Assembly: GCA_036872755.1 (NCBI GenBank)
Contig: JAVHNS010000018.1
Location: 186,001-250,000, forward strand
Source: Orbilia blumenaviensis
Taxonomy: Eukaryota > Ascomycota > Orbiliomycetes > Orbiliales > Orbiliaceae
Direction: 5' to 3'
DNA: 64,000 nt
Position numbers and translations under genes: made by a program. Below the pieces are notes generated by a model. It was given only the letters and a program-made list of their open reading frames with translations. It was not told the DNA's origin and made no database searches. Shown here in pieces: positions 24,093 to 62,461 of the stretch (positions are counted from its first letter, which is position 1; each line of letters starts with the position of its first letter).

Positions 24093-24124
24093 ATTTTATA
24101 TAAAATAAATAAATAAATAAATAA
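24093..24124 (+). promoter_or_regulatory. TATA-like element and (AAAT)n run immediately upstream of the disordered-protein gene
   Basis: TTTTATATAAAAT is followed by five AAAT units ending 8 bp before the ATG at 24132. If the TATA-like part is used, the 5' UTR would be very short. Alternatively this is just an A-rich leader. Position-based only. Confidence 0.3.
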
Positions 24125-24131
24125 AAGAGGG

Positions 24132-27100
24132 ATGGAGGACTTCCTCATCTCCGCCGGCACCAAACTCGGCATCTCCGCCATCAAAGCCTTCACATCGGGC
24201 AGCAGCACCGGCACCAGCGCTGCAGCGGGCGCATTAGGCGCCATCGCCGGTGCCTTTGACGAGGATGGTGGTGGTGGTGGCGAGGATATAGATTTTGGAG
24301 GTGGTGAAGACGGTGGTGCAGAGGATTCTACTGAATTTAGTGGTGGTGGGGGGTATGAGAATGATAATACTGGAGGGGAGGGGTATGAGGAAGAAGAAGA
24401 GTATTATGAGGATGATGGAACTGGGGAGTATTATCAGGAAGAAGCTGAGCCGACGGGGTATGGAGAAGGTGATGCTGCTGCTGCCGAAGAAGGAGGGTAC
24501 TACAATGACGACGGGAGCTATACAGATGAATACGGGGTTACATACGACGAGAGCGGGTATATCCTCGACGACGGCAGCGGCGGCGGTGGTGGTGGTGGTG
24601 GTGGTGGTGGTGGTGGATATAACTATGACTACTATGGTGGCGGAGAGGAGGTTGGAGAGGATTATGTTTATGAATATGAAGGGCAGGGGGAAGAAGAGTA
24701 TGATGCTCATGCTGGGGGGTATTCCCATCACGGATCGAAACATAGAGGACTGGGAACTGGACTGGCGATTGGAGGGGCTGCCGTTGCTGGGGCTGCCGTT
24801 CTTGGTGGGGTTGCCTTAGCAGCTAGGAAGGCTAGGGGGAGGGGGAGGGGAGGTGTGCCGCCCGGACGAGGTCAATTTAGAGGAGGAGCAGGAGGTGCTA
24901 CTGCTACTGCATATGCTGCTCGAGGAAGAGGGCGTCCTCAAAGCTTTTCAGGACAAGGGGGGGTTCGGCCGCCGTTACAACATTCGGCTACTGCTCCTGT
25001 AGGGGCGGTGCCCCGTGGAGGGTTAGGAGGAGGAGGAGGGTTTAGGGGAAGAGGTAGAGGTGGACCGTTATCACCGGTTCAAAGGGGGGGTCGAGGGAGA
25101 GGTAGAGGCAGAGGGGGTGCACTCCCACATCACCATTCATTCCCTCCAACCACCACCACCAATACTCGAGGGGCCATCCGAGGGGGGTTCAGAGGACGTG
25201 CTAGAGGAGCACGAGGAGGGGCAGGAGGGGTTATAAGCCCGACCACCCACCACGGCCACCCTCCTATATCTCCACAGACGACCCTCGGCCAACCACCATG
25301 TCCTCAGCAGCAATCTACCCCCTTCAAGGCAAACCTCATAACCCCGCAAACGACAGGTTATAATAGTGCTACAGGCTACGTCGCCAACGGCTTCCAAGAA
25401 ACACTAGGCGCTCCGCCGCCATATACACCTGCTGCCTCTGCGCCGCCCTCTATCTCGAATATACCATCAATACCGCCAGCGCAAAAGCCGGTAGCAAACC
25501 CAGCCCAGCGCGACCAGATGGCCAAACGCAAGCTGGCGGCGTTACAGCAGATCCAGAGGAGGGAAAGGGACAGGATTGATGCGAAGCGACGTGAGGAAGA
25601 GCAGGATCGGAATAGGTTTGAGGCGGCCGGGCAGTTTGATAAAAAGAAGCCTCTCTATAATAATAATAACGGAGGAGTAGAACCGGAGGAGGTCAAGGTC
25701 ACTACAGTAGAGGAGGAGGTCACGGTTACAATTAACCTGCCGCCGGGGGTGAAGCCTGCTTCTTCTTCTAATCCTATACCTGTGTCTACGACTACGACTT
25801 CGACTACGACTACGACTACGATTACGACCATGGCTTCGGCTTCGGCGCCGCCGCAGTCAACTTTTAACCCGCCGCCGCAGGAGCAGCCGTTGAATACCAA
25901 TATCAATGGCAACAATCAGAACGTCAATACCCCTAACCCAAACTTCAACATACCCAATCAAAACGACAATACACCCGGTCAAAATGTCAATATACCTAGT
26001 CAAAATATCAATCAAAACGTCAATATACCGGGTCAAAATGGAGGGGTAGCAGGAGGGGCTGTACCGCGACCACAGGTCAATAACATGCCCCGGCCAATGA
26101 GCTACCCCAGCACCACTACCACAGTTCCCCCTCCTCACAACCACCATCACCACCATGTACCCCCCTTCTCTTCTGCTGCGTCAACTCCAACCTCATCAAA
26201 TCAACCGGCTCCAAACCGTGTGCCGGTGCCCGGCAGCCTCGTCGAAATGGACGGCGGGCAGTACGTCAACCCTCCACCGCCAGCACCACCAGCAGCACCG
26301 GTATCCTACCCCCAGAACCCACCAGCTTTATATCAGAACCAAGTACCAAACAAAGGACCAGGCACCTGGTCAGCCGCGAACTTACCCCCCGTCGAGCTGG
26401 GGAATACCCAGTTCACGCCTACTCCCCAGCAACAACAGCAGGCACAGTATCCTAATCCTAACGGCGGACAGTATCAAAACCACAATAATAATAATAACGG
26501 TGCCGGCGGCAATACACAAGGCCCGCAGCGAACACTATCCATGCTACAGCGCTTCCCATCCCGCAAGCCTGTGCAACAGCAGAGACCAGTGTCGATGATG
26601 ATACCCCCGTCTCACGCACAGAATTCTCTAAACAACGGGTTTAACAACCCTGGCAAACAGCATAGTTTCCACTATCCACACGAGCATGATCGTGATCCTC
26701 AGAACCAAGTAGTTAATAACGGTGCTGCGTCCGCTCCACCGCAGATATACCCCCATAACGCGCCGAGGGAGCCTAGGAAAAAGAAGAGTGAGGAGAAAAG
26801 GTTGCAGCAGCAGCAGCAGCAGCAGCCGGAGGAGGAGGAAGGGTGGAAGCCGCCGCCGTTGAAGGTTGTTCAGCGGCGCAAGTTTAATTCTGGAGCACCA
26901 GATCCCGCTCCTCTTCAATCACAGCAGCAGCAGCAGGAGGAGGGAAGGATATCTGAACATAACAATGCATCTTCAAAGCCATCTACCCATGAGACGGTAT
27001 CATCATTTATACCACCCCCTCCTCCCCCGCTGCCATTCGACGAACCCACACCCCCTCCTCCTCCACCCGGACAATCCGAGAATTCACAGCAGACATCTAC

Positions 27101-28229
27101 AACCCCACAACCAACCGAAACCACTTCTCCACAAACCCCATCCCTCTCCCTCCCCGTCCGTAACTCCATCTATTCAAACATCCACTCCACCAATACCCTT
27201 CCACCACAAAACGAAAACGCCAATATCCAACCCTCAAATCCAGCACGAACCACCGAAACCACGGGTATAACACAGCAACTATCACAATTAAACACCACTG
27301 AAAATGTGTATACCCAGGGTGGTTCTAATACCCCTTCCTCGGTGATAGAGCATCACGAACAAACAGTGATCGATACTCCAAGAGTCGAGACGCCGAAGGG
27401 GTATCATGAAAACTTTGCACCGGGGGTGGATATCCCCGGGCTTACTATCAGAAGGGGATCGATGCCCGTCCAGCGGCATGCTTATCAAGAAACCGCGCAT
27501 GTTCCTCATCCTCCTCCGCCACAGCAGGTATCACAGTTTGAAAACGCACAGTTCCGCCAGCCACAGTTTGAAAATACACATATTAATCATCAGAACCATC
27601 TCCAGCAGCAGCAGCAGCAACCCAACCACTTCCAACAGCAGTATACCCAACCACCAGAATCAACCCGCAGACACAGCACCTACACCACCACAACATCAAA
27701 CACCATCCCCCACCCCCCTCCACCGCACTTATACACCCAAGAAACCTCCACTCCCACAACCCACAAACAATTCCCCTTCAATCAACAACTACAGCACTCA
27801 ACGACCTTCCCCGCAAACTACAGCGATCTGAACAACTACCCCCGTCCGCCCGTCACCGCCTCTTCTTTCCACCACAATAATAGCAATATATCTCAACCAC
27901 CATCCCACATAATGGAAATGCCCGGCTCAACCGGCTTCGCGCCGTCTAATGGGGTTGTGATGACGCCGTATGATAATAATCCGTTTATTGCGGAGTTGCC
28001 CGAGATACCGCTTGCTGTTAATGGTGGTGGCGGTGGTGGTGGTGGTGGTGGTAAAGCCGGGGGTGATGCGATGGATGCGGAGTATTTGAATCGGAGGGAG
28101 GGGATTGGCTATGATGTTGCTGCTGTTGATGATGGGAAGGAGGTTGTGGTTGGTAGTGGTAAGGGAGGAGGGGAGGAGGAGGTGAAGATGAGTGCTAATA
28201 GTTGGGGGTTTGGGTGGGATCGGTTTTGA
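24132..28229 (+). CDS. Giant intrinsically disordered protein with Gly-rich, RGG, Asn/Gln- and Pro-rich regions
   Basis: This single intronless frame is 1365 residues. Order: N-terminal helical-looking segment (MEDFLISAGTKLGISAIKAF); acidic Gly/Tyr/Glu region with a poly-Gly run (about residues 35-200); Gly/Ala hydrophobic stretch (GLAIGGAAVAGAAVLGGVAL, about 208-230) that could be membrane-associated; RGG/GRGRGG repeats (about 232-365); a charged helix (QMAKRKLAALQQIQRRERDRIDAK, about 460-485); repeated (N)IPGQN units (about 595-640); then Pro/Gln/Asn-rich sequence with several poly-Gln runs and poly-Gly near the end, closing with SWGFGWDRF. There is no catalytic domain. RGG plus Asn/Gln-rich sequence is typical of phase-separating or RNA-binding proteins, and large disordered proteins also occur at fungal septal pores. 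Both roles are inference. Coding-strand composition switches repeatedly between C/A-rich and G/T-rich blocks. Confidence 0.75.
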   Translation: MEDFLISAGTKLGISAIKAFTSGSSTGTSAAAGALGAIAGAFDEDGGGGGEDIDFGGGEDGGAEDSTEFSGGGGYENDNTGGEGYEEEEEYYEDDGTGEYYQEEAEPTGYGEGDAAAAEEGGYYNDDGSYTDEYGVTYDESGYILDDGSGGGGGGGGGGGGGYNYDYYGGGEEVGEDYVYEYEGQGEEEYDAHAGGYSHHGSKHRGLGTGLAIGGAAVAGAAVLGGVALAARKARGRGRGGVPPGRGQFRGGAGGATATAYAARGRGRPQSFSGQGGVRPPLQHSATAPVGAVPRGGLGGGGGFRGRGRGGPLSPVQRGGRGRGRGRGGALPHHHSFPPTTTTNTRGAIRGGFRGRARGARGGAGGVISPTTHHGHPPISPQTTLGQPPCPQQQSTPFKANLITPQTTGYNSATGYVANGFQETLGAPPPYTPAASAPPSISNIPSIPPAQKPVANPAQRDQMAKRKLAALQQIQRRERDRIDAKRREEEQDRNRFEAAGQFDKKKPLYNNNNGGVEPEEVKVTTVEEEVTVTINLPPGVKPASSSNPIPVSTTTTSTTTTTTITTMASASAPPQSTFNPPPQEQPLNTNINGNNQNVNTPNPNFNIPNQNDNTPGQNVNIPSQNINQNVNIPGQNGGVAGGAVPRPQVNNMPRPMSYPSTTTTVPPPHNHHHHHVPPFSSAASTPTSSNQPAPNRVPVPGSLVEMDGGQYVNPPPPAPPAAPVSYPQNPPALYQNQVPNKGPGTWSAANLPPVELGNTQFTPTPQQQQQAQYPNPNGGQYQNHNNNNNGAGGNTQGPQRTLSMLQRFPSRKPVQQQRPVSMMIPPSHAQNSLNNGFNNPGKQHSFHYPHEHDRDPQNQVVNNGAASAPPQIYPHNAPREPRKKKSEEKRLQQQQQQQPEEEEGWKPPPLKVVQRRKFNSGAPDPAPLQSQQQQQEEGRISEHNNASSKPSTHETVSSFIPPPPPPLPFDEPTPPPPPPGQSENSQQTSTTPQPTETTSPQTPSLSLPVRNSIYSNIHSTNTLPPQNENANIQPSNPARTTETTGITQQLSQLNTTENVYTQGGSNTPSSVIEHHEQTVIDTPRVETPKGYHENFAPGVDIPGLTIRRGSMPVQRHAYQETAHVPHPPPPQQVSQFENAQFRQPQFENTHINHQNHLQQQQQQPNHFQQQYTQPPESTRRHSTYTTTTSNTIPHPPPPHLYTQETSTPTTHKQFPFNQQLQHSTTFPANYSDLNNYPRPPVTASSFHHNNSNISQPPSHIMEMPGSTGFAPSNGVVMTPYDNNPFIAELPEIPLAVNGGGGGGGGGGKAGGDAMDAEYLNRREGIGYDVAAVDDGKEVVVGSGKGGGEEEVKMSANSWGFGWDRF

Positions 28230-47611: not shown

Positions 47612-48977
47612 ATGAACAATCAGGGGTACTGTCTGGCCATGTTCGGCCACAGGAGAGGCAAAATCATCTTTGGAGCTGTGCTCCTCTCCGTTCTTGCGCT
47701 ATTCTTCTTTACACATACAACTGTAAGCTTCATTGTACTTTCTATTCGCAGTGACAGCGGTAGCTAATGTCAGTTTTCAGAGCTCTGTGTACCTAAAGGA
47801 CTTGGCACGACCATGGCTGCATCCATCTGTCTCTTCTCACGACCTCACACTCTTCAAACAGGAAGACTACGATCGCAAAATCCACCTCCTCATCCCCATT
47901 ACCTCTCCAAACGCCAAATTTTGCAAGACGTTCTTTTCTTCCGTTGTCAATGGATACCCTCCCCCATTCCTTATCAACTACAACCAGACCTACTGGCAGG
48001 AGGCGATTGCTCGTGCGCAGAAGATTAAGGGCTTCCACGACTATCTGAACACCCGCACTGGTGATGATGATATTGTTATTATGATTGATGGATTTGACGT
48101 GTGGTTCCAACTTCCTTTACAAGTCCTGCTAGCTCGATTCTTGAAGTTGGGTGTCCCGGTTGTCTTCGGAGCCGACAAGAAGTGCTGGCCAAATGACATG
48201 AAATCCGTCGCATGCACTGCTATCCCTCAATCTCCGCTTCCCGGCGACGTTTTCGGCGACGACACAGATCGACAAACAATTCTTCGTTCCCGTCGCGAGA
48301 AATACGACAATTTTCGTCCTCGTTGGGTTAATTCCGGTACCATCATTGGTTACGCGTCTCATGTTCGCTCTATCTACCAGGAAGCGTGGAAGAAGGTTGA
48401 GGAAGCCGGACAAGAAGTCGACTCTGACCAGATGATTCTCGCTGAGGTTTACGGAGAAAGGGTTGTAAAGGGGGACAACTCTATGAGTGTAGATTTCTAT
48501 TCTACTCTCTTCCAGACTATGACATACTCCCACAACGATATCGCCTTCATTCGCAACCCGTCAGAGGAGTGGACCTCTACCACTTTTTCCAAGACCATCT
48601 CCACTGAGAAACTCCCTTTGGAAGACTTGGGATTGTCCAGCAAGTCACCAAACCCGAATAGAAGTCCATGGAAGTGGCGTAACCTTGCCTGGAATAAGGT
48701 CTCCAACCGTATTCCAACCTTACTCCACTTCAATGGTCCTAAGAATTTTATCGACCTTTGGTGGCCCAGGATGTGGTACTACGAGGATGGAGCAAAGTGG
48801 ACAGAGAAGATCAAGCAGGAGCCACATAGGGCCGGTGCATGGACAAACGTGAAAGAGGCTAACAAGCTAGGCTGGTTTGATTACCAGACCTTGTGTGGGC
48901 GGGAGAGATTGTTTGGCGAGCCAGAACCACAGGCACCCGCCAAACCTGATGAAAAGAAGAACCAACCGGCGCACTAA
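47612..48977 (+). CDS. Type II membrane glycosyltransferase, PLOD/GT25-like
   Basis: I predict exon 1 at 47612-47722 and exon 2 at 47781-48977, giving 435 residues. The intron is GTAAGC...TTTTCAG in phase 0. A nearer CAG (47771-47773) would break the frame. Exon 1 supplies a short basic N-terminus (GHRRGK) and a signal anchor (IIFGAVLLSVLALFFFTHTT), which places the enzyme in the ER/Golgi lumen. The lumenal domain carries a metal/nucleotide-sugar DxD-like motif IDGFD (residues 139-143, inside DDDIVIMIDGFDVWFQ), then VVFGADKKCWPN, RWVNSGTIIGYASH, DSDQMILAEVYGE and HFNGPK (about 353-358). This order (DGxD, FxAE/FGADK-CWP, NSGxxxG, DDQ/SDQ, HxNGP) matches the glycosyltransferase domain of PLOD/procollagen galactosyltransferase-type proteins that fungi also carry. 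Acceptor unknown. Confidence 0.85.
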
Positions 48978-51707: not shown

Positions 51708-53522
51708 CTACCATGGCCTGTCGACATCAATATGGAATCTCTTATCGAGGAAAACTCCGATGTTGTAACTGAAGAGTTCATGCTCAACACCAGCCTCAAA
51801 TGCTCCACCAATTGAGGCATCTGCCTTGGCAGTACCCCTCATGAGCGCATCGGCATGAAGGTAGACGCACATGTCATTGCTCTTGGATCCGGGACAGTTG
51901 TCAAGGCTATCCAGTCTAGCTTCAACGTTGACGGCCGGGAACTGGATTGTAACGTCGGCGTGACCTTTTGCAATTCCGAATGCCAACTCAATATCCATGC
52001 CAATTCTTGGCCCAACCCAGGCGGTTATTCTGGCATCCTGAATACCCCATGGGGAAACACCTCCGAAGAAGATGGGCTCATGGAAGTCGATGGACGGGAT
52101 AAGGTCACCATCAATAACGGGGAGTTTTGTAAGAAGATTGAAACCGACGTGGAAAGTACCCCACGTACCCCTGAAACCAACTCCTTTAACTTGTAAGGCG
52201 GATTTAACATCGATGTCGGTGGCAGCAATGATTTGAGCATTGGGTGTAAGGGTTATTGCGTTTTCAATGTCGACATACCATGGAACGACGGATAACAATG
52301 GGATTTCGTGGCTGCCCTCATAGTGGAAAGTCCAGCCGACCCACAAGTCTATGTTGAAGACGGGGTTGACGATATCGATTCCAACAACGGCACCGAAATA
52401 CTGCTTACTTCGGGGACTGAGGGAAACGGATCCGAAGAGTCTCACGGCGCCCTCAATACCGCATTCAGTGCAGCCCAAGGCGGCAGATCCTCCTTGATTT
52501 GGGTCTCCCATAGCATCCCTATTGATTTGGAAAAGGTTGGTGCCAGTGAAGCTGAATTTTTGTTCCGGGGTCGTGAACCTATGGATAGTCTTGTCAAGGA
52601 GCTTCTCGATTTCCACAATTATTTTGTTGAAGCTAACGCCGCGTGCTCTGATTTTGCGGTTGATGGTAGTGTCTTCGGTGTGATTATGGATATTGAAGGT
52701 ACCGAATTCTGTGTCGATTTGGTCAATGACTTCTTCCACTTCGGCCTTTGTAACTGTGAGGGCAACCCCCGTGGCGTCAGAGGCAGCAACCGCCGAAATC
52801 TTGAAGTAATTATAAATCCCCTCGGTGCCGCAGTATTCACCTCCACCAGTCATGAGGATAATATCTTTGTTAGACCATGTTGAAACGGCAAGATCGCGGT
52901 AGGCTGCAGTAGTGAACTTGAGGGTGATGCTGTCTGCGCCACAAACTGGAAGGCCGTCGAGACCGCTGCGGAACTCATCAAGGTTGACTAGTAGAGCGTC
53001 ATTCGCAGCCTTGAAGCTCTGAAGTGCTACAAGAGCGGTATCGTTGTCAGCGCCGAGACTGCCCAAGACGGCGTTCTTGATGACGGCTGGTGGGATGCTA
53101 TCGCTCACTGACGCAGTCTCAACAGCGAGTGGGAGGGCTTTGACGGTTGGGAGGGGCTGTTTGACTGTCCAGGGCTGGGTGGTCGAGGTAACCGCAGGAG
53201 TTGGGGGCACATAGCTGCCAAAAGTGATGGTGCTGGAAGGCGCCCTAGTCGTCGTCGAAGCTACGCTGTTAAGGCAAGTACAGGCGCTGGAGAGTCTAGA
53301 GGTAGAAGCTGTGTATTGAGCATTCAGCCAAGTGGGGTAGGCTTGCCCAGTGGTAGCCGGAGTAGCAGTGTATGTGCTACACCAAACAGAGGCACTAGAA
53401 CTTCTTTCGGCCGCTCGAAGATGGCGGAGAACATTGTCTGCAGTACATTTGGCAGCAGGGGCAGCAGACACAGAAAGTGCGCCCAAGACCGCTGTAGCGG
53501 CAAGGGAAGAAGACAATTTCAT
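51708..53522 (-). CDS. Large secreted protein of unknown function, possibly DUF7223/DUF7029-like
   Basis: This single frame is 604 residues. Signal peptide at residues 1-20 (MKLSSSLAATAVLGALSVSA, then APAAKC). An N-terminal Cys-bearing part (KCTADNVLRHLRAAERSSSAS, SSACTCLNSVAS) precedes a Pro/Ser/Thr linker (about 90-130). The large C-terminal region is beta-rich, with GTNLFQINRDAMGD, a CTECGIEG motif (about residues 352-359) followed by AVRLFGSVSLS, and many alternating hydrophobic strands ending FLDKRFHIDVDRPW. The CxxCxxxG-then-beta pattern reminds me of the secreted fungal DUF7223 group, but I cannot verify it. No catalytic motif is seen. A GAA-rich tract (53597-53647) lies in the presumed 5' UTR/promoter. 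Confidence 0.8.
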   Translation of the reverse strand: MKLSSSLAATAVLGALSVSAAPAAKCTADNVLRHLRAAERSSSASVWCSTYTATPATTGQAYPTWLNAQYTASTSRLSSACTCLNSVASTTTRAPSSTITFGSYVPPTPAVTSTTQPWTVKQPLPTVKALPLAVETASVSDSIPPAVIKNAVLGSLGADNDTALVALQSFKAANDALLVNLDEFRSGLDGLPVCGADSITLKFTTAAYRDLAVSTWSNKDIILMTGGGEYCGTEGIYNYFKISAVAASDATGVALTVTKAEVEEVIDQIDTEFGTFNIHNHTEDTTINRKIRARGVSFNKIIVEIEKLLDKTIHRFTTPEQKFSFTGTNLFQINRDAMGDPNQGGSAALGCTECGIEGAVRLFGSVSLSPRSKQYFGAVVGIDIVNPVFNIDLWVGWTFHYEGSHEIPLLSVVPWYVDIENAITLTPNAQIIAATDIDVKSALQVKGVGFRGTWGTFHVGFNLLTKLPVIDGDLIPSIDFHEPIFFGGVSPWGIQDARITAWVGPRIGMDIELAFGIAKGHADVTIQFPAVNVEARLDSLDNCPGSKSNDMCVYLHADALMRGTAKADASIGGAFEAGVEHELFSYNIGVFLDKRFHIDVDRPW

Positions 53523-53614
53523 TCTGGAAAGGTCTCTGAGCGAGTGTAATTAAGGAAACTTGACAATAAAAAGGGAAGTATATTAAAAAGATCTCAATGA
53601 AGAAGAAGACCGAA

Positions 53615-53645
<31 letters not shown>

Positions 53646-55808
53646 TTTAATTAATGATGTGAATCGAAGAGGATGATGGTAGAAGAAAAAAGGGAATACG
53701 GTCGAGGGTATGCTCTGTATTTATCCTCAATCCTCAGTAATGCATCATCGTCAAAGGACTAGAATTTTGCGATAGTGTTGACATAGGCCTGCTGGTATAG
53801 CCCATAAGGCCCATAGCACCTTGCATGTCCGAGCTAGGGTTGAGATATTTCGGGAACATGAATGCCAATGGCTCAATTGACTCTCGACGACATCACGCAT
53901 TTCGCTTAACCCAATCTGTCTAATCGTACGACTAGCCACCTTCAGCTCAGGGACCAAACAATGCCTGCACGGATGGAATAGATATCATTTCGACATTCAG
54001 CCAATGCTGTTGTTTGTGACACCAAGGCAAGGAAGCCACCCGCGGAGGGAGTGTAGGGATAAAAGTCGTGTTGTTTTTGTGGTATCCGCAGATACGCCGC
54101 ATTTTCAAAGCCTTGGCATAGATTTGCACCAACCTTGGCGTTTCTCATAGGCTTGCCGGAGAGAGACCAAACCTAATTAGGAAGCATTCCGCGAGGCAAC
54201 ATGCGACTAGTGCGTCGGCGGCTTGTTTCTCTCTTGTCGATTCATTGTAACCTCAAATTCAGGGTCCTTCTTGAGTTCCCGCAATACAACATCGCTTATG
54301 AGCCGGAGGCAGGAAGAAAAATAAAAATTTACCCGTATATTGTTGGCTCTGTTCTGTTGGATAGCTTCGCAGAATGGGGAGGAATCATTGGTGTTAGGAT
54401 CACAAAGCTGACTTGATTGCTTCAGAGTCAGACCAGTCGTAGAAACCCATGAATTGCTGTCGGATACACTAAGCCCCACGAAGTAATCTGATCTATGCGA
54501 GATCATTAATTGTTTGTCTCTCGCTGCCGGGTTTTTGCCTTAAAGACCCATTATTGTGCAATGCGGACAGCTAGGCTGCAGATGCAACCTTGCCGGGGAG
54601 AGCGAACTCGGTTGATATATATAATTATACGTTTTAGAGGTCAGAGTTCCGACTGAGGGCTGAGGGCTGGAGCTTCGAACGTAAAGCCACTAGATTCTGG
54701 AAGCATAAGGTAGCTTGCTAATGGGGATTTACGTAAAGATTGAGAAATTATTGGCTGGGTGTGCGTTTGCCGTTGTTTCAATCATGGCACCTCGCGCTCG
54801 CAAGATTGATCTAGATTGGGCCCAAGGGCCTCCATTATATGACAGGGTATGGCCTGACTCCGAAATCCCATATCTGAAATCGATAAATGTTATCGGTGTC
54901 GATATCACTACACCTTAGAGGACCGAGGGTCTAGATGTCCGTTGTGTTGATAATGTGGTATTTCGTTTTACTAGGTGCGTGTTGGCATGCTAAGACCTGT
55001 CGCTTTGTATTGGGCTGGGTATTGGGGCCAATCTAAAGAGAGTCTATCTAAGTCGTCAGTTCAAACCCGAATGCCTATCACGAAGTAAGTTATAAGTTAG
55101 GTTTATGAATTTAATGATGTTTGATTTTAAAATTTCCCACGGTTGTGTTGGAATAGGTTGCAATCAGTTGTGGAAGTGGTCATCATAAAATTTTCAGACG
55201 CAGATGGCTGCATGCATGCATGCGCATACGAGATATTCCGGTATTTGCCTCAGTGGCCATGTTTAATCAAATGGGTGTGAGCACGTAGCATTGGTATGCA
55301 TACCTGCGGATGCATAGGACTGGGCGGATTACAGAGAGGTATGGAAGCATAGTTGTCTTCTAGCTAAAACGGATGGCTTTGGGGCTGTACTGAGTATACT
55401 AGAGAACAACGGTTCATCTGTTATCAATATTGCATTAAACTTAAATCGGTACCGGAATGCGAAGGGTGAACAAAAACCATACAAGTGAGACTAGAAAGGC
55501 TTTGACAAACTATTCTCCAGCCAGCCGGCCGTCTGGTCGCTTTTGAGATAGGGCAATTAATACTAATAGACTCAGCAATATAGAACAGTCTTAACGATAG
55601 AAGCCGTAGAAACAGTCACAATTTGTATTCTTCGCGCTGAGATATGGGGCAACTAAAAAAGAATTTCCGTAGTAGGAGAAGAAAAAATTGAAAAATAATA
55701 CAGTCTGATCGCGGGGTTTTTCGTCTTGCATTTTCGAATCGCGCGTTCGTCATGCAGGATCTATGGGCTAATGCCTGTCAGCCCCCCCCAATTATAATTA
55801 TTGCTGCG
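53523..55808. other. Intergenic region between secreted protein and the NLR locus, no gene
   Basis: The secreted gene's promoter lies at the left, with (GAA)n at 53597-53647. Short frames (53751-54148, 54201-54506, 54715-54918) are without domains, and a GCATGCATGCATGCGCA run sits near 55212-55228. I see no RNA gene. Confidence 0.55.
53597..53647. repeat. GAA-rich microsatellite
   Basis: An imperfect GAA/AGA run lies about 75 bp upstream of the secreted-protein start codon. Purine-rich on the plus strand, so pyrimidine-rich on the gene's strand. Confidence 0.85.
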
Positions 55809-58800
55809 TCAATCATCCGACAAACTCTTTTCGTTGCTGTCATCGTCATCTGCTCCAACTTTCTCTCCATTCGCTCCGAGTTCAGGTCCGTTAACCAAAA
55901 TTCCTTCTTCATTCGCTCCCGTTTCGTCTTCATCAGCTCTGATTTCGCCATTCATCTGAGGTTCCTCGTTCTCCGATACCTTATGTTCTTTTCTCTCAAC
56001 GAGAAGCCGCTCCAACTCGTCAATGTCTTTTTCATAGTCGGTAAACATGAATGGTCTGCTGCCGAAGTTGACATCTGCGGGGTGTTTCTGACTGATGGAG
56101 ATCGCAGGGAAATATCGCATCCCGCGTTTGCCGGTTGCCTTCACACCCAAGTATTTGCCATTCAGAGTAAAGTATACTCTCATAGTGCGAATATCAATTC
56201 CACAACCAACAGTATCCCGCTCGTGAGATCTTCCAAACAACGGGCAGTGCTCATCGACCCCCCAACTTCGATTACAAAATATTCCCCCGTCATCGCCGTG
56301 ATAACCGATTCCTTTGTACCAGCCCACCATCTTGTAGCCAAAGTAACTACTCCCTTCTTCTTGAATACCAATGCCACTGGATCTATGTTTGAATGCTACC
56401 GGTTAGCATTGCGGTCATCGGTTGGGTCGATACATATACCCCAATATCTTCACTGATAAAGGGGCATTTGGGTTAGTTGTATTACCCTGTGCCTTCGTCT
56501 TCGTCGTGAACAGTCATTTCAAAATAATAACCGTTTGTCCCAACGGGAACTGGGTGATCTGCCATAAGTATTTGGTAGTGCCCCTGCTCTAAATATCAAT
56601 TGAACGAATTAACTCTTGTTAGAATAAACGCGGGAACCCGGTATTTGGGTCAGGTCAGGTAAACGAACCTTCATGTCTAACAGAAAGGCCATCTTCTGAT
56701 ACGGTCATTCCGGATACGGAAGCTGAGGGTATATGACAAAGGCGGGAAGGGGGTAATGCCTCCCTGCTCGTCGTCTCCGCATCTGCTGCAATTTTATATA
56801 ACTGCCTATCTGTAAGTAGGCCCTTGTATACATCAGCCTTATTTTTCCAGTCCAAGACGTTGATTCGGGTCCAACCATGCTCATCAGTCTCTACAAGGTA
56901 ATGAGGGTTAATTTTGAGAGCCAGCGCAATTGAATCTCGAGATTCTAACTGGGGTAAATCCTTCGGAAACTCCTTTCTCATGCTGCTGATATCTATCCCA
57001 GAAACACTCTGCAGTAGCATTTCCTTACACGCCTCCAAATTGCCGAGCTTATGTGAATAATCGATGCCTGTTGCGGCGTTTGAAAGGATGTTTCTGATTC
57101 TAGCCTCACAGTCAAATACAGCAAAGGAACATGCCTGTGCCTTTTTGTTTTCTGGTAAGAGGATGCTGAGAAGGTGACCTAGAATTTCCTTGTTGCCACT
57201 CTGGGCTGCTGCAGTGATGGCATTTTCTTTCTTTGTTTTGCTTGGCAAGACAGCGTTCTGAAGGTCATTTGTGGAAGACGAATGATTCAATTTCCCTAAC
57301 AGCAACTTTAGGACTGACACATCATCGTCTGGTCGGCAAGCCGCGCAGTGAATTAAGTTTCCTTCGCCATAATCATCGAAAATAAAAGCATTGTCAGAAG
57401 TGTCGTAGCATTTCAGGAGTCTTTCGATGAATTTCCTACTCCGTCCCTTGACCGCTAGAGAAAGGGCTGTTTCATTTTCGCTCGTCTTTGCCTCATAATC
57501 AATATTGGCCCCAAGAAGGGTATCAAGGATCTCAAGATCAATTTCAGCGTCAACTGACAGAGGAACAAGGTCGAAGAATGAACCCAAGCCTATAGGGCCG
57601 GCAGCGAGCGTATGCAGAGCGTTCCGGTCATTAAAATCGGGATCATTAACATTCAAACCTATGCCGCGTTTAAGTAGTATATGGATCGACTTCAGATCCC
57701 CAACTCTTACAGCGTATGCCAAGGGGGCAACGCTCCCGTCATCCTCCGCATTTATGTCCGCGCCCTTTTCAAGCAAAAGCTTCAGAATTTTGCCGGGGTT
57801 TCTCTCTTTGTCTTTGCCTCTCGAGGGTGGTCGCGAAAGGAGATAGTGTAACACCATGCGCGAATCCTCGTCTATTGTTTTTTGGAGATCCCATTCCTGA
57901 TGGTTGAAAATCTTTTCGAAGAGGGCAAAATTTTGTATTCGAGCAGCCATTAGCAATGGATAGGTATCATAAAAAGGGTTGGCTGTTACCGCTCTCATAG
58001 GTTTCGGAGCATTACCGAGCAGGAGGCTAATACTTTCTATCAATGCACTATCATAAGCCGGATCAATAGCTGCGTCGCGCAGGGCCATCTCGAGCACCGT
58101 TAGTTCCCGACTTCGAGAGAATGGATCTGGGAGATCCAGATCCGTGTTGGCCCCTCTTTGAAGTAAATACTTTACTATTTTGGGATGCTTAACAGCAAGT
58201 GCGACAGGGGTCAATCCATCCCCATTAAGCTTGTTAAGATTATCTTCGTGTGTGTGCTCACGATCGCCCTCGTGACGATGTTCTAGCTGATGGTAGGCTA
58301 AGATATGTAGCCCAAGTCTCGAAGCTATATGGATAGGATACTCTATTTGTGTATTTTTGTAGGCCTCAGATTCGGAAGTCTTCTCTTTCGTAATTTTGTT
58401 TTGGATATGCCACCGAAACCATGTTTCAGACTTGGTAAAGCTTGTCAGCTGCCCCAATATGCTTTTTGTTTTTTCATTTTCTAGATTTTCGAGTAATTGG
58501 TATTCTTCGAGAACACGAAGATGGTCGTGCCAATGGTTTATTTCGTAACGACTGCGATTCTGAAGCTCGCCCTCGACTTTCAAGTTATTAGGTATACCTT
58601 GCATTGGAGGGTCAGGATCTAGACTTGGAAGTTTCTCTTTCCAGAATGTTGTCTCTTCTGATGGTGGACCCCAACGCATATACTGCTGCTGAAATCCTGG
58701 GTTGTTCAAGGCGCTCACTATTGAGTTGACCGATCAGCGTCAATTCGCCGTAAATTTGTTAGGGTGAAATTGATAATTCAGTCAGGGGATTAGAGTTTTA

Positions 58801-60555
58801 GATGTTTACCTACAAATGGCTTCAAGAATTGAGAAATGGCATTCGCCTCTGTCAAAAAGCTGGTATAGATGTAGGTGGGTGTTTGCTGAAGTTCCGTCGA
58901 TTAGTCATAGTATTAATACGCAAGCAATTGGTTTGCATGTTTCTCATAACTCAATTCGATCCATATAATGGCAATGGTTGGGAGAGGATATACTTACAAG
59001 GCAAAGTAATATTTAGTGTCCATTGGCCAGTTTTATCCTTTTGCCAGTTTGCTCCCGTTTTCATCTTAAACAGGCCCATTTTACCTGGCGACCCCTTCGC
59101 CTCGCTGAAAATCCATTCTCGAACTGACTCATGAACATCTATAGAAATCTGGTGTTCATCGAATTTGAAGAAGTCTCTGCCAGCCGTGTATAGGTGGTGC
59201 GTTATCTCCCTTATATTCGGATCTTCTCGTGGCTCGCGAAATTGAATGATCTGTGCTCCCTGACTAGCATTCTCTTCGTTAGGATCTTTTGACTCAAGCT
59301 CTCCTCTGGATTGGATACCCTTATCCTCAACTTTTACACGGTAGAAATTCTGATAGTGTTCAGCAATTTCTGCCACAGTGACCGTAGAGAAACTCCAAAC
59401 AACCCACTTGAGCGCGAATATGACGAGATCACGCTGGTCGATAGTCAGAGCCTCGAGCGTACTTTTATATACTTCGCCCATAGTAGTGGTCTTTTCCAAT
59501 TCCATCAACTTTTGGTCCAATGGCATCTTAGAAGGTTGATTTAGAAAGCGGATAGCTAACCCTGCTTTCATAAAATCACCTTTTGCTCCATTCTGAGTGA
59601 ATTCAACAATCTTGTTGACTTCTTCAGTATGATTAGTAGTTCCAACCATATCTTCCCCCATTCTCACATTAACTATTTTTATCGCTTCTCTTTTAAGATA
59701 CGCCCCGAGCTCTTCCTTATTTCTAGCCTCTGTAATTGTAATCGTCTTGACCCCATCAAGTGTTGAGTTTGGAATATCTTTTGGTGAGAGGAGATTTTTT
59801 ATAGCTATGTTCAATGTATCGCTTCGAACTGAAATTATAACCCTGATGGTAGTGAGGTTAGACTGAGCTAGCGATTTTAAGTAATAAACCAGCTGTTGCT
59901 CGCGCGATATGTCCTCGCATTCGTCAATTGCATCGACGATAATGTAAACCGGAGCGTGTAGCAATTCTGCAACCTTCTCGATGACCCTAATCTTAGGCGC
60001 AGATTTTGGCTCTATCTTTCCGTTCCGAGAGCGCATGGCATTCAGTCCATTATCTCCAAGAATGTCGATACACTCCTTCAAGGCATCGCTTTTGAACATG
60101 TCATGAGTATCGTTGAATATCGGATTGTTGAGGAGTTGTGCTCGCAATGTTTCCAAGGCTTGTTCGGAGCGTTTCACAAAATCATCACTTGCCTTAAAGA
60201 AGAAATGTAGCACAATTCGGCCCATTGATTCGAGTTTCCGCTTTAAAAACCCCATTTGAACAGATTTTCCGAAACCTCGAGGGCCATCGAGAATCAGCAT
60301 ACGAGTATCTTTAGCCTCCGGTTCTAACCAGGTAATGCAGTCAGCCTCCTGGTGAAGCCAGCCATCTGATCCTCGATCATTGATTATCTGATCCATGGTC
60401 TCTTCGAGCGTTCGAAATTTCGTGTTATGCACTTCTATCGATTTCGATTCACCCCTTTTCTGTTGGAACTGTTTCACTAAATCGCCCATCTTGTCCTTTT
60501 CATACAAATGTGTGACGTGCTTTTGAATTCCTATTACGCCACTTTTTATCAGCAT
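55809..60555 (-). CDS. NACHT-ankyrin-SPRY STAND/NLR-type protein, five exons
   Basis: I predict exons 60555-58998, 58885-58814, 58717-56669, 56588-56486 and 56382-55809. All splices are GT-AG (donors GTAAGT, GTAGGT, GTTCGT, GTAATA) and all phases agree, giving 1451 residues. NACHT: Walker A GPRGFGKS at residues 91-98, Walker B VYIIVDAIDECED at about 203-215, and IRVIISVRSD at about 237-246 as sensor-like strand. Ankyrin repeats fill about residues 600-1130 (NGDGLTPVALAVKHPKIVKY, LLLEKGADINAEDDGSVAPL, ENETALSLAVKGRSRKFIER). SPRY is about 1245-1368 (GYYFEMTVHDED, IGYHGDDGGIF, GCGIDIRTMRVYFTLNG, DVNFG). The tail is acidic. NACHT NTPases oligomerise on ligand sensing, and fungal ones act in incompatibility and immunity-like responses. 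SPRY would be an extra recognition module. An in-frame TAA at 60565-60567 precedes the Met. See also the upstream entry. Confidence 0.8.
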
Positions 60556-60760
60556 TAACCGCCATTACGTTTGAAATATCAATGCCTGGGGGGCATTTTA
60601 TTACCCCGGACATCGTTGCCAACAATCGCAAACGTGGAAAGCACTATTTGCGGAGAAAAAACTTAGTCTGTCGGAAGATTCTGGAAAAATTCAGCGAATT
60701 ATGCATTTAGCTATGGGAAATACCATCTTGGAATCCTGGAGGTAGCCGGTAGATGGATCG
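60556..60760. other. Gap between the NLR N-terminal ORF and the NACHT exon
   Basis: About 205 bp with stops in all minus-strand frames. No convincing donor follows the upstream frame (its stop at 60761 is preceded only by weak GT sites such as GTCGAA). A plausible acceptor (GCTGATAAAAAG, ending near 60542) sits just inside the NACHT exon. It could be an intron with an unusual donor, an insertion, or a true intergenic spacer. Confidence 0.5.
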
Positions 60761-61927
60761 TTAGAGAGCTTTGATTCGACTAGAAGTTGTATTTAGAGTG
60801 GATGCCGTACCAGCCTTCATTTCACTAGAGACTTTTTTCTCGAACAAACCCTTAGCTAATATCTCAATGGCCTGGAAAGCTGTATTTATGTCACTATCAA
60901 AAGTTTTGAATTCGCCGTTGAAGAACTCTTTGATAGAATCCGCTATTGTCAACCACTCGATTAGCGTGTTCTCCCGCCGGGTAAAAACCGTCTTACCCGC
61001 GGGTAGCGGGGCGAATATGAATAGTGCATATATATATTATCAAGAGGAGGAGAATGTTGAAACCAACCAAGTGATCCTTCAGAGTATCTGGCAGCTTCCC
61101 AGAAAAACCGAAAGATTGAAGAAAACAGCTGTGATATGCTTTCACGCAAATTTGATTCCGGGTTACTGGTATCTGGGGTAAACATTTGCGGGGGTATGAT
61201 GCTTCCGGGTTCGTCGTCCCACATTTCAGACTCTCCACATTCCGATACATCGTCAGGTATCGGCTGGGAACTACCAAGTAGGTATGTCTTCTCGTAAATG
61301 AGGCATCTTCCGATAATGGCCACGACATTTTGAGTGGTTGAAGAGATGGCCTGGTCGATTTCCCTAAACGCTGAAGCTACCTATTGCGAGAGTAAGAATT
61401 GGTCAGCCTGTCTATTAGTATTAATAGCATGCAAGACCGTCTAGATATCTGATCATCTCTTCCATGGTGTTTCAGCTTAGACCGAATCTGAATTTATATA
61501 TATAAGCCTATACCTTGATGGTAATACTAATTCCAAACCATATAATGCCGATGATATCTGGCGCTGTCTGCAAAAGAACCCCTGCTGTAGTATCTGTCTT
61601 TTGCAAGAAACTTATGAATTTCTCTAGGTGGCCGCCGTCATTGTTGTTCCCTGATGTTTCTAAAACCTTATCACAGGAGTTTTTGAGCTTCTCCAACGTG
61701 AAATTTCTTTTCCCCTTTACTTTCTTGAATATTCTATCCCGGATTCCCCGCCGAGATTTCTGACTATCCTCCGTGGCACCTGGTTGTTCCTGAAGATCTT
61801 CAAACGGCGACTTGGAGTTCTGCTGCTCCTCAATAAACCTTCTTAACCCCTCTTTCCAGCATTTAGATGTATGTTTAACATTATACACCCCTTCGGGCTG
61901 GGCCAGGGCTGTTTTGTCCCCGTTCAT
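60761..61927 (-). CDS. N-terminal region of a fungal STAND/NLR protein, separate or broken
   Basis: I predict exons 61927-61514, 61380-60997 and 60955-60761 (TAA), about 330 residues. Intron 1 (133 bp) is GTATAG...AATAG with phase 0. The second gap can only be closed by a 41-nt intron (GTAAGA...CTAATCGAG), very short with the branch close to the acceptor. Content is helical: LEKLKNSCDKVLET, then LEKFISFLQKTDTTAGVLL, QTAPDIIGIIWFGISITIK, VASAFREIDQAI and SQLFSSIFRFFWEAARYSEG. The hydrophobic Q.AP.I....WG-type helix resembles the N-terminal helical domain preceding NACHT in many fungal STAND proteins, here followed by WLTIADSIKEFFNG. It is on the same strand and in the right order to be the N-terminus of the NACHT-ankyrin-SPRY protein, so these may be one gene with a break or an unrecognised splice. 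Confidence 0.5.
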
Positions 61928-62461
61928 ATTCTAGTTTTCCGTGGGGCGCCAGTGCTTAGCCTCGATCCTGGACTTCAATCATGATAAAGAGGTATAGATC
62001 CTGATGTTGTGTGCTGGTCCCTAGAAACGTGAACCCTTTGATTCCTGAAGTAGGTGGATGTTGAAGAGGTGTTTGTGAGTATTGTGGGCCCAGGGGAATA
62101 CCAAAAAGCCTACCCCGCACTTAACAAACAAAATTGAGTGGAGAACTATAAACAGGGAACTCAAGTGCTGAGGGCTGAGAAATAGGTTGGGCTAAATCTA
62201 TAAGCCTCGCGAGCTCGAAATAACGAGTACATGGCCTGAGCGCCTGCATATCGATGCATATCGCAATCGTGATCCATATTGTAGGTGTGCCGGGCCCACT
62301 TTGAAGAATCTAACTATCTATATTGCAATGCTATCCTCGGACAGAGACGGGTAGGAAGGTCGTATAAAATCTGCAGATATGTGGCGTAAATGCGGGTTTT
62401 TAACTCATGGCCAACGCGCGGGCCGCCGAGTTTATATTGGGGGAGAAGAAAGTACCGTAGG

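What the first reader, a model, noticed from the sequence alone, without database searches (positions are those of the whole stretch)
55809..60555. Candidate NLR with a C-terminal SPRY domain (NACHT-ankyrin-SPRY)
Seen: three open frames for NACHT, ankyrin repeats and SPRY join through four GT-AG introns with matching phase. The apparent stops between the SPRY halves fall inside a 103-nt intron. Known: fungal NLR-type proteins usually end in ankyrin, TPR or WD40 repeats. SPRY/B30.2 acts as a recognition module in animal proteins such as TRIM and some fish NLRs. Inference: this could be a recognition receptor with two sensing modules, comparable in layout to animal NLR-B30.2 proteins but arising independently.
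Basis: partly seen in the sequence, partly recalled or inferred. Interest (0 to 1): 0.8.

Follow-up and report, generated by a model that had tools for sequence, protein, structure and literature searches.

The report
Fungal immune-type receptor with SPRY tail
This is a real gene, in what appears to be a nematode-trapping fungus, for an NLR-type receptor that ends in ankyrin repeats and a SPRY domain, an arrangement already described in other fungi and here seen as an apparently old family with many members.

Summary
Nine exons of the window give public protein P0001 (Orbilia blumenaviensis TWF730_004430, 1722 aa) letter for letter. The layout is not new: 46 NLRs with ankyrin and C-terminal SPRY are published for Sordariales, with the same comparison to fish NLR-B30.2. 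What I add: at least 15 NACHT-ankyrin-SPRY loci in this genome, beside 121 merged NACHT loci; a NACHT lineage shared with a Sordariomycete; a SPRY nearest to RanBP9/10, not TRIM; and, in two paralogues, an intron position shared with the genome's own RanBPM/Gid1 gene. SPRY is the most conserved segment against O. javanica (64%), though not against more distant P0003, so no sign of fast evolution; selection within the species was not testable. Function is inferred, not shown. New member of a known kind.

The parts
   Evidence: P0001 residues 1-138
61068..61380 (-). exon 2, N-terminal domain continued
   Evidence: DUF7708 match below cut-off
60811..60942 (-). exon 3, N-terminal domain, last part
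60724..60735 (-). exon 4, 12-base micro-exon of the public model; least certain exon
   Evidence: needed to reproduce P0001 letter for letter
60605..60643 (-). exon 5 of the public model
58998..60530 (-). exon 6, NACHT (NPHP3_N at about 60366-59824; P-loop GPRGFGKS and IIVDAIDECE, named Walker A and B from recall)
   Evidence: Pfam 1.4e-19; place; motifs in the translation
58814..58885 (-). exon 7, 24 residues, absent from the public model, supported here
   Evidence: alignment gain with P0002 and P0003, none with P0017
56669..58717 (-). exon 8, linker, ankyrin repeats and the stretch leading into SPRY
   Evidence: Ank_2 8.1e-20
56486..56588 (-). exon 9, first strands of SPRY
55809..56382 (-). 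exon 10, rest of SPRY (nearest to RanBP9/10), tail, stop
   Evidence: SPRY 2.9e-10; solved relatives
56383..56485 (-). 103-base phase-2 intron inside SPRY, same place and phase in paralogues L009, L010 and L015

Best explanation
A single gene for a fungal STAND/NLR receptor: N-terminal DUF7708/NACHT_N-like domain, NACHT ATPase, ankyrin repeats, C-terminal SPRY. Most likely mechanism: the ankyrin-SPRY end binds a protein or peptide (an invader's, or an altered self protein), which frees the NACHT for ATP-driven oligomerisation, and the clustered N-terminal domains kill or seal off the cell part. Shown here: the joined domains, intact P-loop motifs, relatives in other species, a family of at least 15 loci. 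Inferred: ligand binding by SPRY (from its likeness to RanBP9/10), oligomerisation (from NACHT), cell death (from the distant relation of the N-terminal domain to DUF7708/NACHT_N proteins, a group whose neighbours others model as an MLKL-like four-helix bundle).
For: Domains and motifs. Relatives aligned end to end: O. javanica, Dactylellina haptotyla (SPRY degenerate, Pfam E 0.051), Monosporascus. 11 of the genome's 14 Pfam SPRY matches lie 3.5-5.2 kb downstream of a NACHT match on the same strand. A custom SPRY profile finds SPRY at the corresponding place in 4 of 4 NACHT-nearest loci that lacked a Pfam SPRY, and all four also have ankyrin. Controls: no other window frame below E = 1 (next 2.9 and 7.2), nothing at E <= 1 in five shuffles of all frames, no SPRY at E <= 1 in the five public NACHT proteins used as rows without SPRY. 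An N-terminal profile matches 12 of 12 loci of the same NACHT lineage (one of them this gene, a seed of the profile) and 0 of 3 of the other. In paralogue L015 the ankyrin frame runs on into the first SPRY strands without a stop.
Against: No transcript, protein or phenotype. The N-terminal domain is below Pfam's DUF7708 cut-off in P0001 (14.6 against 25 bits), and its matches to DUF7708 proteins are modest: 23.4 bits for P0011, 14.4 for P0024, 6.7 for P0021, with E-values (8.9e-8, 5e-5, 0.012) for a set of only 37 proteins. Nothing shows that SPRY senses anything; its conservation against O. javanica fits a fixed partner as well as an invader's protein. In five relatives (L031-L034, P0003) SPRY is degenerate.
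Confidence: 0.6

Rival explanations
1. Integrated decoy (may overlap with the best explanation): the SPRY was copied from the fungus's own RanBPM/Gid1 gene, a core part of the GID/CTLH ubiquitin ligase, and is bait for invaders' proteins that attack Gid1.
For: Nearest solved SPRYs are RanBP10 and RanBP9, 2e-11 and 4.4e-11. The genome's own RanBPM/Gid1-like gene (L020/L035: RanBP9 1.7e-40, CTLH 1.5e-20) shares a phase-1 intron at NGxxL^G with NLR loci L012 and L014. The Sordariales paper argues such a case for a kinase domain.
Against: The shared Gid1 intron is absent from the window's gene. The SPRY tree is unresolved (1 starred of 12 inner branches). SPRY occurs throughout a NACHT lineage that reaches a Sordariomycete, so the fusion looks old and kept, unlike a recent decoy.
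Confidence: 0.2
2. Regulatory adaptor: the SPRY ties the receptor to the cell's own machinery (GID/CTLH or another fixed partner) and controls its level or resting state, while the ankyrin repeats do the sensing.
For: SPRY is the most conserved segment against O. javanica; RanBP9-type SPRYs bind partner proteins (recalled).
Against: Degenerate SPRYs in L031-L034 and P0003 show that it need not stay intact; against P0003 SPRY is not the most conserved segment.
Confidence: 0.15
3. Separate neighbouring genes wrongly joined in the model.
For: No RNA evidence here; compatible GT-AG pairs are easy to find (1 to 43 per SPRY junction).
Against: Joined proteins in other species, the same order in 15 loci, one unbroken ankyrin-into-SPRY frame in L015, a SPRY intron of one place and phase in four loci.
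Confidence: 0.02
4. Silent or decaying family member with no present function.
For: Degenerate SPRYs in relatives; an in-frame stop within the NACHT of paralogue L017, unless an intron removes it.
Against: The window's gene is open over ten exons and keeps its P-loop motifs; its SPRY is 64% identical to that of O. javanica.
Confidence: 0.05

Closest known systems
NACHT-ankyrin-SPRY NLRs of Sordariales (PMC12258605: SPRY in 46 NLRs, of 4613 in the set; always C-terminal, always with ankyrin)
   Same: same order of domains, same proposal of SPRY as a sensor, same comparison with fish
   Different: another class (Orbiliomycetes); here at least 15 loci beside 121 merged NPHP3_N loci, a count by other methods and another denominator; N-terminal domain characterised here; NAIP- or TLP1-type of the NACHT not tested
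Teleost NLR-B30.2 receptors (from the passage in PMC12258605, and recall)
   Same: NACHT plus a C-terminal SPRY-type domain
   Different: there LRR and PRY-SPRY (recalled); here ankyrin, no PRY, LRR or FISNA match, SPRY nearest to RanBP9/10
RanBPM / Gid1 (Vid30) of the GID/CTLH ubiquitin ligase
   Same: nearest type of SPRY
   Different: CTLH present in the genome's Gid1-like gene, not found in P0001; NACHT and ankyrin instead
Fungal incompatibility NLRs such as Podospora HET-D, HET-E and NWD2 (abstract starts, and recall)
   Same: tripartite NLR plan
   Different: WD repeats with high internal conservation there (recalled); here ankyrin repeats and no tandem DNA repeat in 55500-62200

Membership tests
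Fungal NLR (STAND, NACHT) | NACHT-type P-loop domain | tested here: met
   NPHP3_N 1.4e-19; GPRGFGKS and IIVDAIDECE; the Pfam NACHT model itself is below cut-off, 20.8 against 26.7 bits
Fungal NLR (STAND, NACHT) | C-terminal superstructure-forming repeats | tested here: met
   Ank_2 8.1e-20
Fungal NLR (STAND, NACHT) | N-terminal effector or signalling domain | tested here: inconclusive
   a domain conserved in 12 of 12 lineage loci, distantly related to DUF7708/NACHT_N, below Pfam cut-off in P0001; activity untested
Fungal NLR (STAND, NACHT) | ligand-triggered oligomerisation and cell death | not testable with these tools
   needs experiment
NACHT-ankyrin-SPRY class of Sordariales | SPRY at the C-terminus next to ankyrin repeats | tested here: met
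   SPRY 1.8e-11 at residues 1518-1640 of P0001, above cut-off
NACHT-ankyrin-SPRY class of Sordariales | same gene lineage as the published 46 | not tested
   their sequences were not at hand; a Xylariales relative (P0017) shares the NACHT clade
Teleost NLR-B30.2 | PRY-SPRY (B30.2) domain | tested here: not met
   no PRY match up to E = 1; no TRIM among 33 solved chains
Teleost NLR-B30.2 | leucine-rich repeats | tested here: not met
   ankyrin families only
RanBPM/Gid1 | SPRY nearest to RanBP9/10 | tested here: met
RanBPM/Gid1 | CTLH/CRA domain | tested here: not met
   no match in P0001 up to E = 1; the same library finds it in the Gid1-like gene at 1.5e-20

The most novel reading that the evidence does not exclude
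Before Orbiliomycetes split from the other filamentous ascomycetes, a RanBPM/Gid1-type SPRY was joined to ankyrin NLRs in one or two NACHT lineages and has been kept since, so that SPRY is a canonical fungal NLR sensor built from a ubiquitin-ligase recognition module. Nematode-trapping fungi expanded it: 15 of the 18 SPRY loci found in this genome are in such receptors.
Probability: 0.3. Interest if true: 0.55.

Novelty: new member of a known kind. Interest (0 to 1): 0.38.

Why it matters
It carries the ankyrin-SPRY NLR plan from Sordariomycetes to a class that branches first among filamentous ascomycetes, gives a testable source for the SPRY (RanBPM/Gid1), and points to a fungal route to SPRY-tailed receptors distinct from the fish one. 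It also adds an exon to a public gene model.

Tried and rejected
Rejected: separate genes (relatives are joined); a TRIM-like B30.2; a fast-evolving tandem array (no tandem repeat in 55500-62200). The PADLOC search gave one match only, over ankyrin residues 1121-1174. Horizontal origin was not tested. Inconclusive: the SPRY tree; whether all SPRY NLRs are one NACHT clade (not rejected, p-AU 0.302); SPRY intron places in L014, L016, L018 and L031-L034. Results against the age argument: with three long rows left out, support for the main NACHT clade falls from 99/96 to 90/94, and treekit warns of long branches meeting, among them L017 with P0017. Of 22 public proteins with a NACHT match the tree holds 9 besides this gene; 12 were left out by my choice, so only 5 of 17 without SPRY are in it. 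In the degenerate SPRY search the two single-protein scans saw only 7 and 9 of the 15 loci, so 15 is a lower bound. A census downstream of the remaining 106 NACHT loci was not possible. Structure prediction was not used: the N-terminal domain spans several exons and the public protein exceeds the length limit.
Full report
What is there. The window is bases 186001-250000 of contig C18 of its genome (42.5 Mb, 23 contigs). C18 is 914,144 bases long, the contig length given for public protein P0001, hypothetical protein TWF730_004430 of Orbilia blumenaviensis. Nine exons of the window give P0001 letter for letter. I infer that the genome is that of O. blumenaviensis TWF730 and that the gene is already public as a SPRY-domain protein. 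Taxonomy: Orbiliomycetes, Pezizomycotina.

Gene model. The public start lies upstream, at 61927: five exons encode about 300 further residues. The O. javanica protein P0002 matches 16 of 25 residues there. With the exon the alignment score rises from 528 to 633 (0 of 500 shuffled exons reach it); for P0003 from 224 to 268 (1 of 500); for P0017 it does not change. As a bare peptide the exon is not significant against P0003 (215 of 1000) or P0017 (948 of 1000). I take a ten-exon, 1746-residue model as best.

N-terminal domain. P0001 reaches only E = 0.029 for DUF7708, P0017 0.087. A profile from four relatives (P0001, P0002, P0003, P0017) matches upstream of the NACHT in 12 of 12 loci of the same lineage, 11 of which are not seeds, and in none of L011, L012 and L014. 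It also matches P0011 (23.4 bits) and P0024 (14.4 bits) over the stretches where Pfam places DUF7708 (and NACHT_N in P0011), and P0021 weakly (6.7 bits); the E-values, 8.9e-8, 5e-5 and 0.012, are for 37 proteins only. PMC9815663 (passages) reports that Goodbye-like domains share the four-helix core of MLKL and that NACHT_N overlaps that region. A membrane-acting effector is therefore an inference at two removes.

Family in this genome. Pfam SPRY gives 14 matches, 12 over the cut-off. Of the 14, 11 lie 3.5-5.2 kb downstream of a NACHT match on the same strand; by my arithmetic about 1 in 100 would by chance. The other three have no NACHT match within 70 kb. One of them, L020/L035, is RanBPM/Gid1-like (RanBP9 1.7e-40; CTLH 1.5e-20 just downstream). 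L019 and L021 were identified no further than SPRY (for L019 I recall Ssh4/Ear1). A custom profile finds degenerate SPRYs in all four NACHT-nearest loci that had no Pfam SPRY (L031-L034), and these too have ankyrin. Ankyrin-region matches are seen in the other eleven. In a search with P0001 all 11 loci matched in the NACHT part carry a SPRY (27 of 109 candidates scored). Two scans with SPRY pieces gave only loci already known, 7 and 9 matches. Total: at least 15 loci beside 121 merged NPHP3_N loci. Controls: no other window frame below E = 1 (next 2.9 and 7.2) and nothing at E <= 1 in five shuffles of all frames. The profile's seeds include P0001, so the window hit is not independent.

Relatives and age. 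P0002 has the full order. In P0003 SPRY is below Pfam cut-off (0.051). Monosporascus P0017 (Xylariales) has SPRY at 4.7e-18 and aligns end to end at 26%. Trichoderma P0007 has NACHT, ankyrin and SPRY in the listing. In the NACHT tree the 12 own loci with P0002, P0003 and P0017 form one clade (99/96; 90/94 with three long rows left out); L012 and L014 join P0007 (99/93; 100/100), L011 less firmly (92/92 in the first tree, left out of the second). The five public rows without SPRY fall outside, and the custom profile finds no SPRY in them at E <= 1 (P0021 at 3.2). A single origin of all SPRY NLRs is not rejected (p-AU 0.302). Orbiliomycetes branch first in Pezizomycotina (PMC3828140, passage), so the plan is probably old; transfer, long branches and thin sampling (5 of 17 public NACHTs without SPRY, and none from this genome) leave room.

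The SPRY. The nearest solved chains are RanBP10 and RanBP9; no TRIM is among the 33 listed. A phase-2 intron stands 12 residues after the same [FY]FE point in this gene, L009, L010 and L015 (best candidate in 4 of 11 loci tested; the frames left only one or two candidates in these four). A phase-1 intron at NGxxL^G is shared by L012, L014 and the Gid1-like L020 (3 of 4 tested; L011 differs). This hints at descent from a Gid1-like gene, but the SPRY tree does not resolve it. Against O. javanica, identity is 64% in SPRY, 58% in the linker, 57% in NPHP3_N, 54% in ankyrin, 48% in the rest of the NACHT region, 39% in the N-terminus and in the tail, 34% between ankyrin and SPRY. Against P0003 SPRY is 31% and NPHP3_N 36%; against P0017 35% and 30%.

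What is known. PMC12258605 (passages and section 14 read) reports SPRY in 46 NLRs, always C-terminal and always with ankyrin, in a set of 4613; it suggests SPRY as a further canonical C-terminal domain and cites teleost NLR-B30.2. Orbilia and Arthrobotrys do not occur in its main text. PMC4986451 (2014) shows 0 occurrences of SPRY in the listing; I read passages of it. A search for Orbilia, NLR and nematode-trapping together found 0 papers; Orbiliomycetes with NACHT found 6, 5 listed, of which I read passages of one. PMC3828140 lists NACHT and SPRY among domains of highly expressed genes on infection, but the passages do not say whether they are in the same genes. In these searches of this library I found no report of the family in Orbiliomycetes; more cannot be said.

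Mechanism. Best reading, about 0.6: an NLR whose ankyrin-SPRY end binds a protein, whose NACHT switches with ATP, and whose N-terminal domain executes a local death response. The first two steps rest on domain identity, the last on distant relation. Rivals are an integrated decoy of Gid1 (0.2, partly overlapping) and a regulatory SPRY (0.15).

Noticed in passing
58885-58814: The public model TWF730_004430 omits a 24-residue exon that two relatives support.
   Followed up: yes
L031, L032, L033, L034: Four NLR loci with SPRYs that the Pfam search missed but a family profile finds, so Pfam counts of SPRY NLRs may be too low elsewhere too.
   Followed up: yes
L017:3064-3066: In-frame stop inside the NACHT of a paralogue; a decayed copy, or within an intron.
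   Followed up: no
L012, L014, L020: Two NLR SPRYs share a phase-1 intron position with the genome's RanBPM/Gid1-like SPRY.
   Followed up: partly
proteins P0015, P0018, P0020 (not in the window): Proteins of about 2,400-2,700 residues with some ten or more SPRY-like stretches in a row each.
   Followed up: no
24117-28226 (+): Open frame of 1370 residues with no Pfam match at E <= 0.001.
   Followed up: no
47727-48974 (+): Frame with a PLOD glycosyltransferase-type domain, 5.6e-18.
   Followed up: no
51711-53549 (-): Frame of 613 residues with DUF7029, 1.8e-10.
   Followed up: no
55692-56456 (+): 254-residue open frame antisense to the SPRY exons; probably spurious.
   Followed up: no
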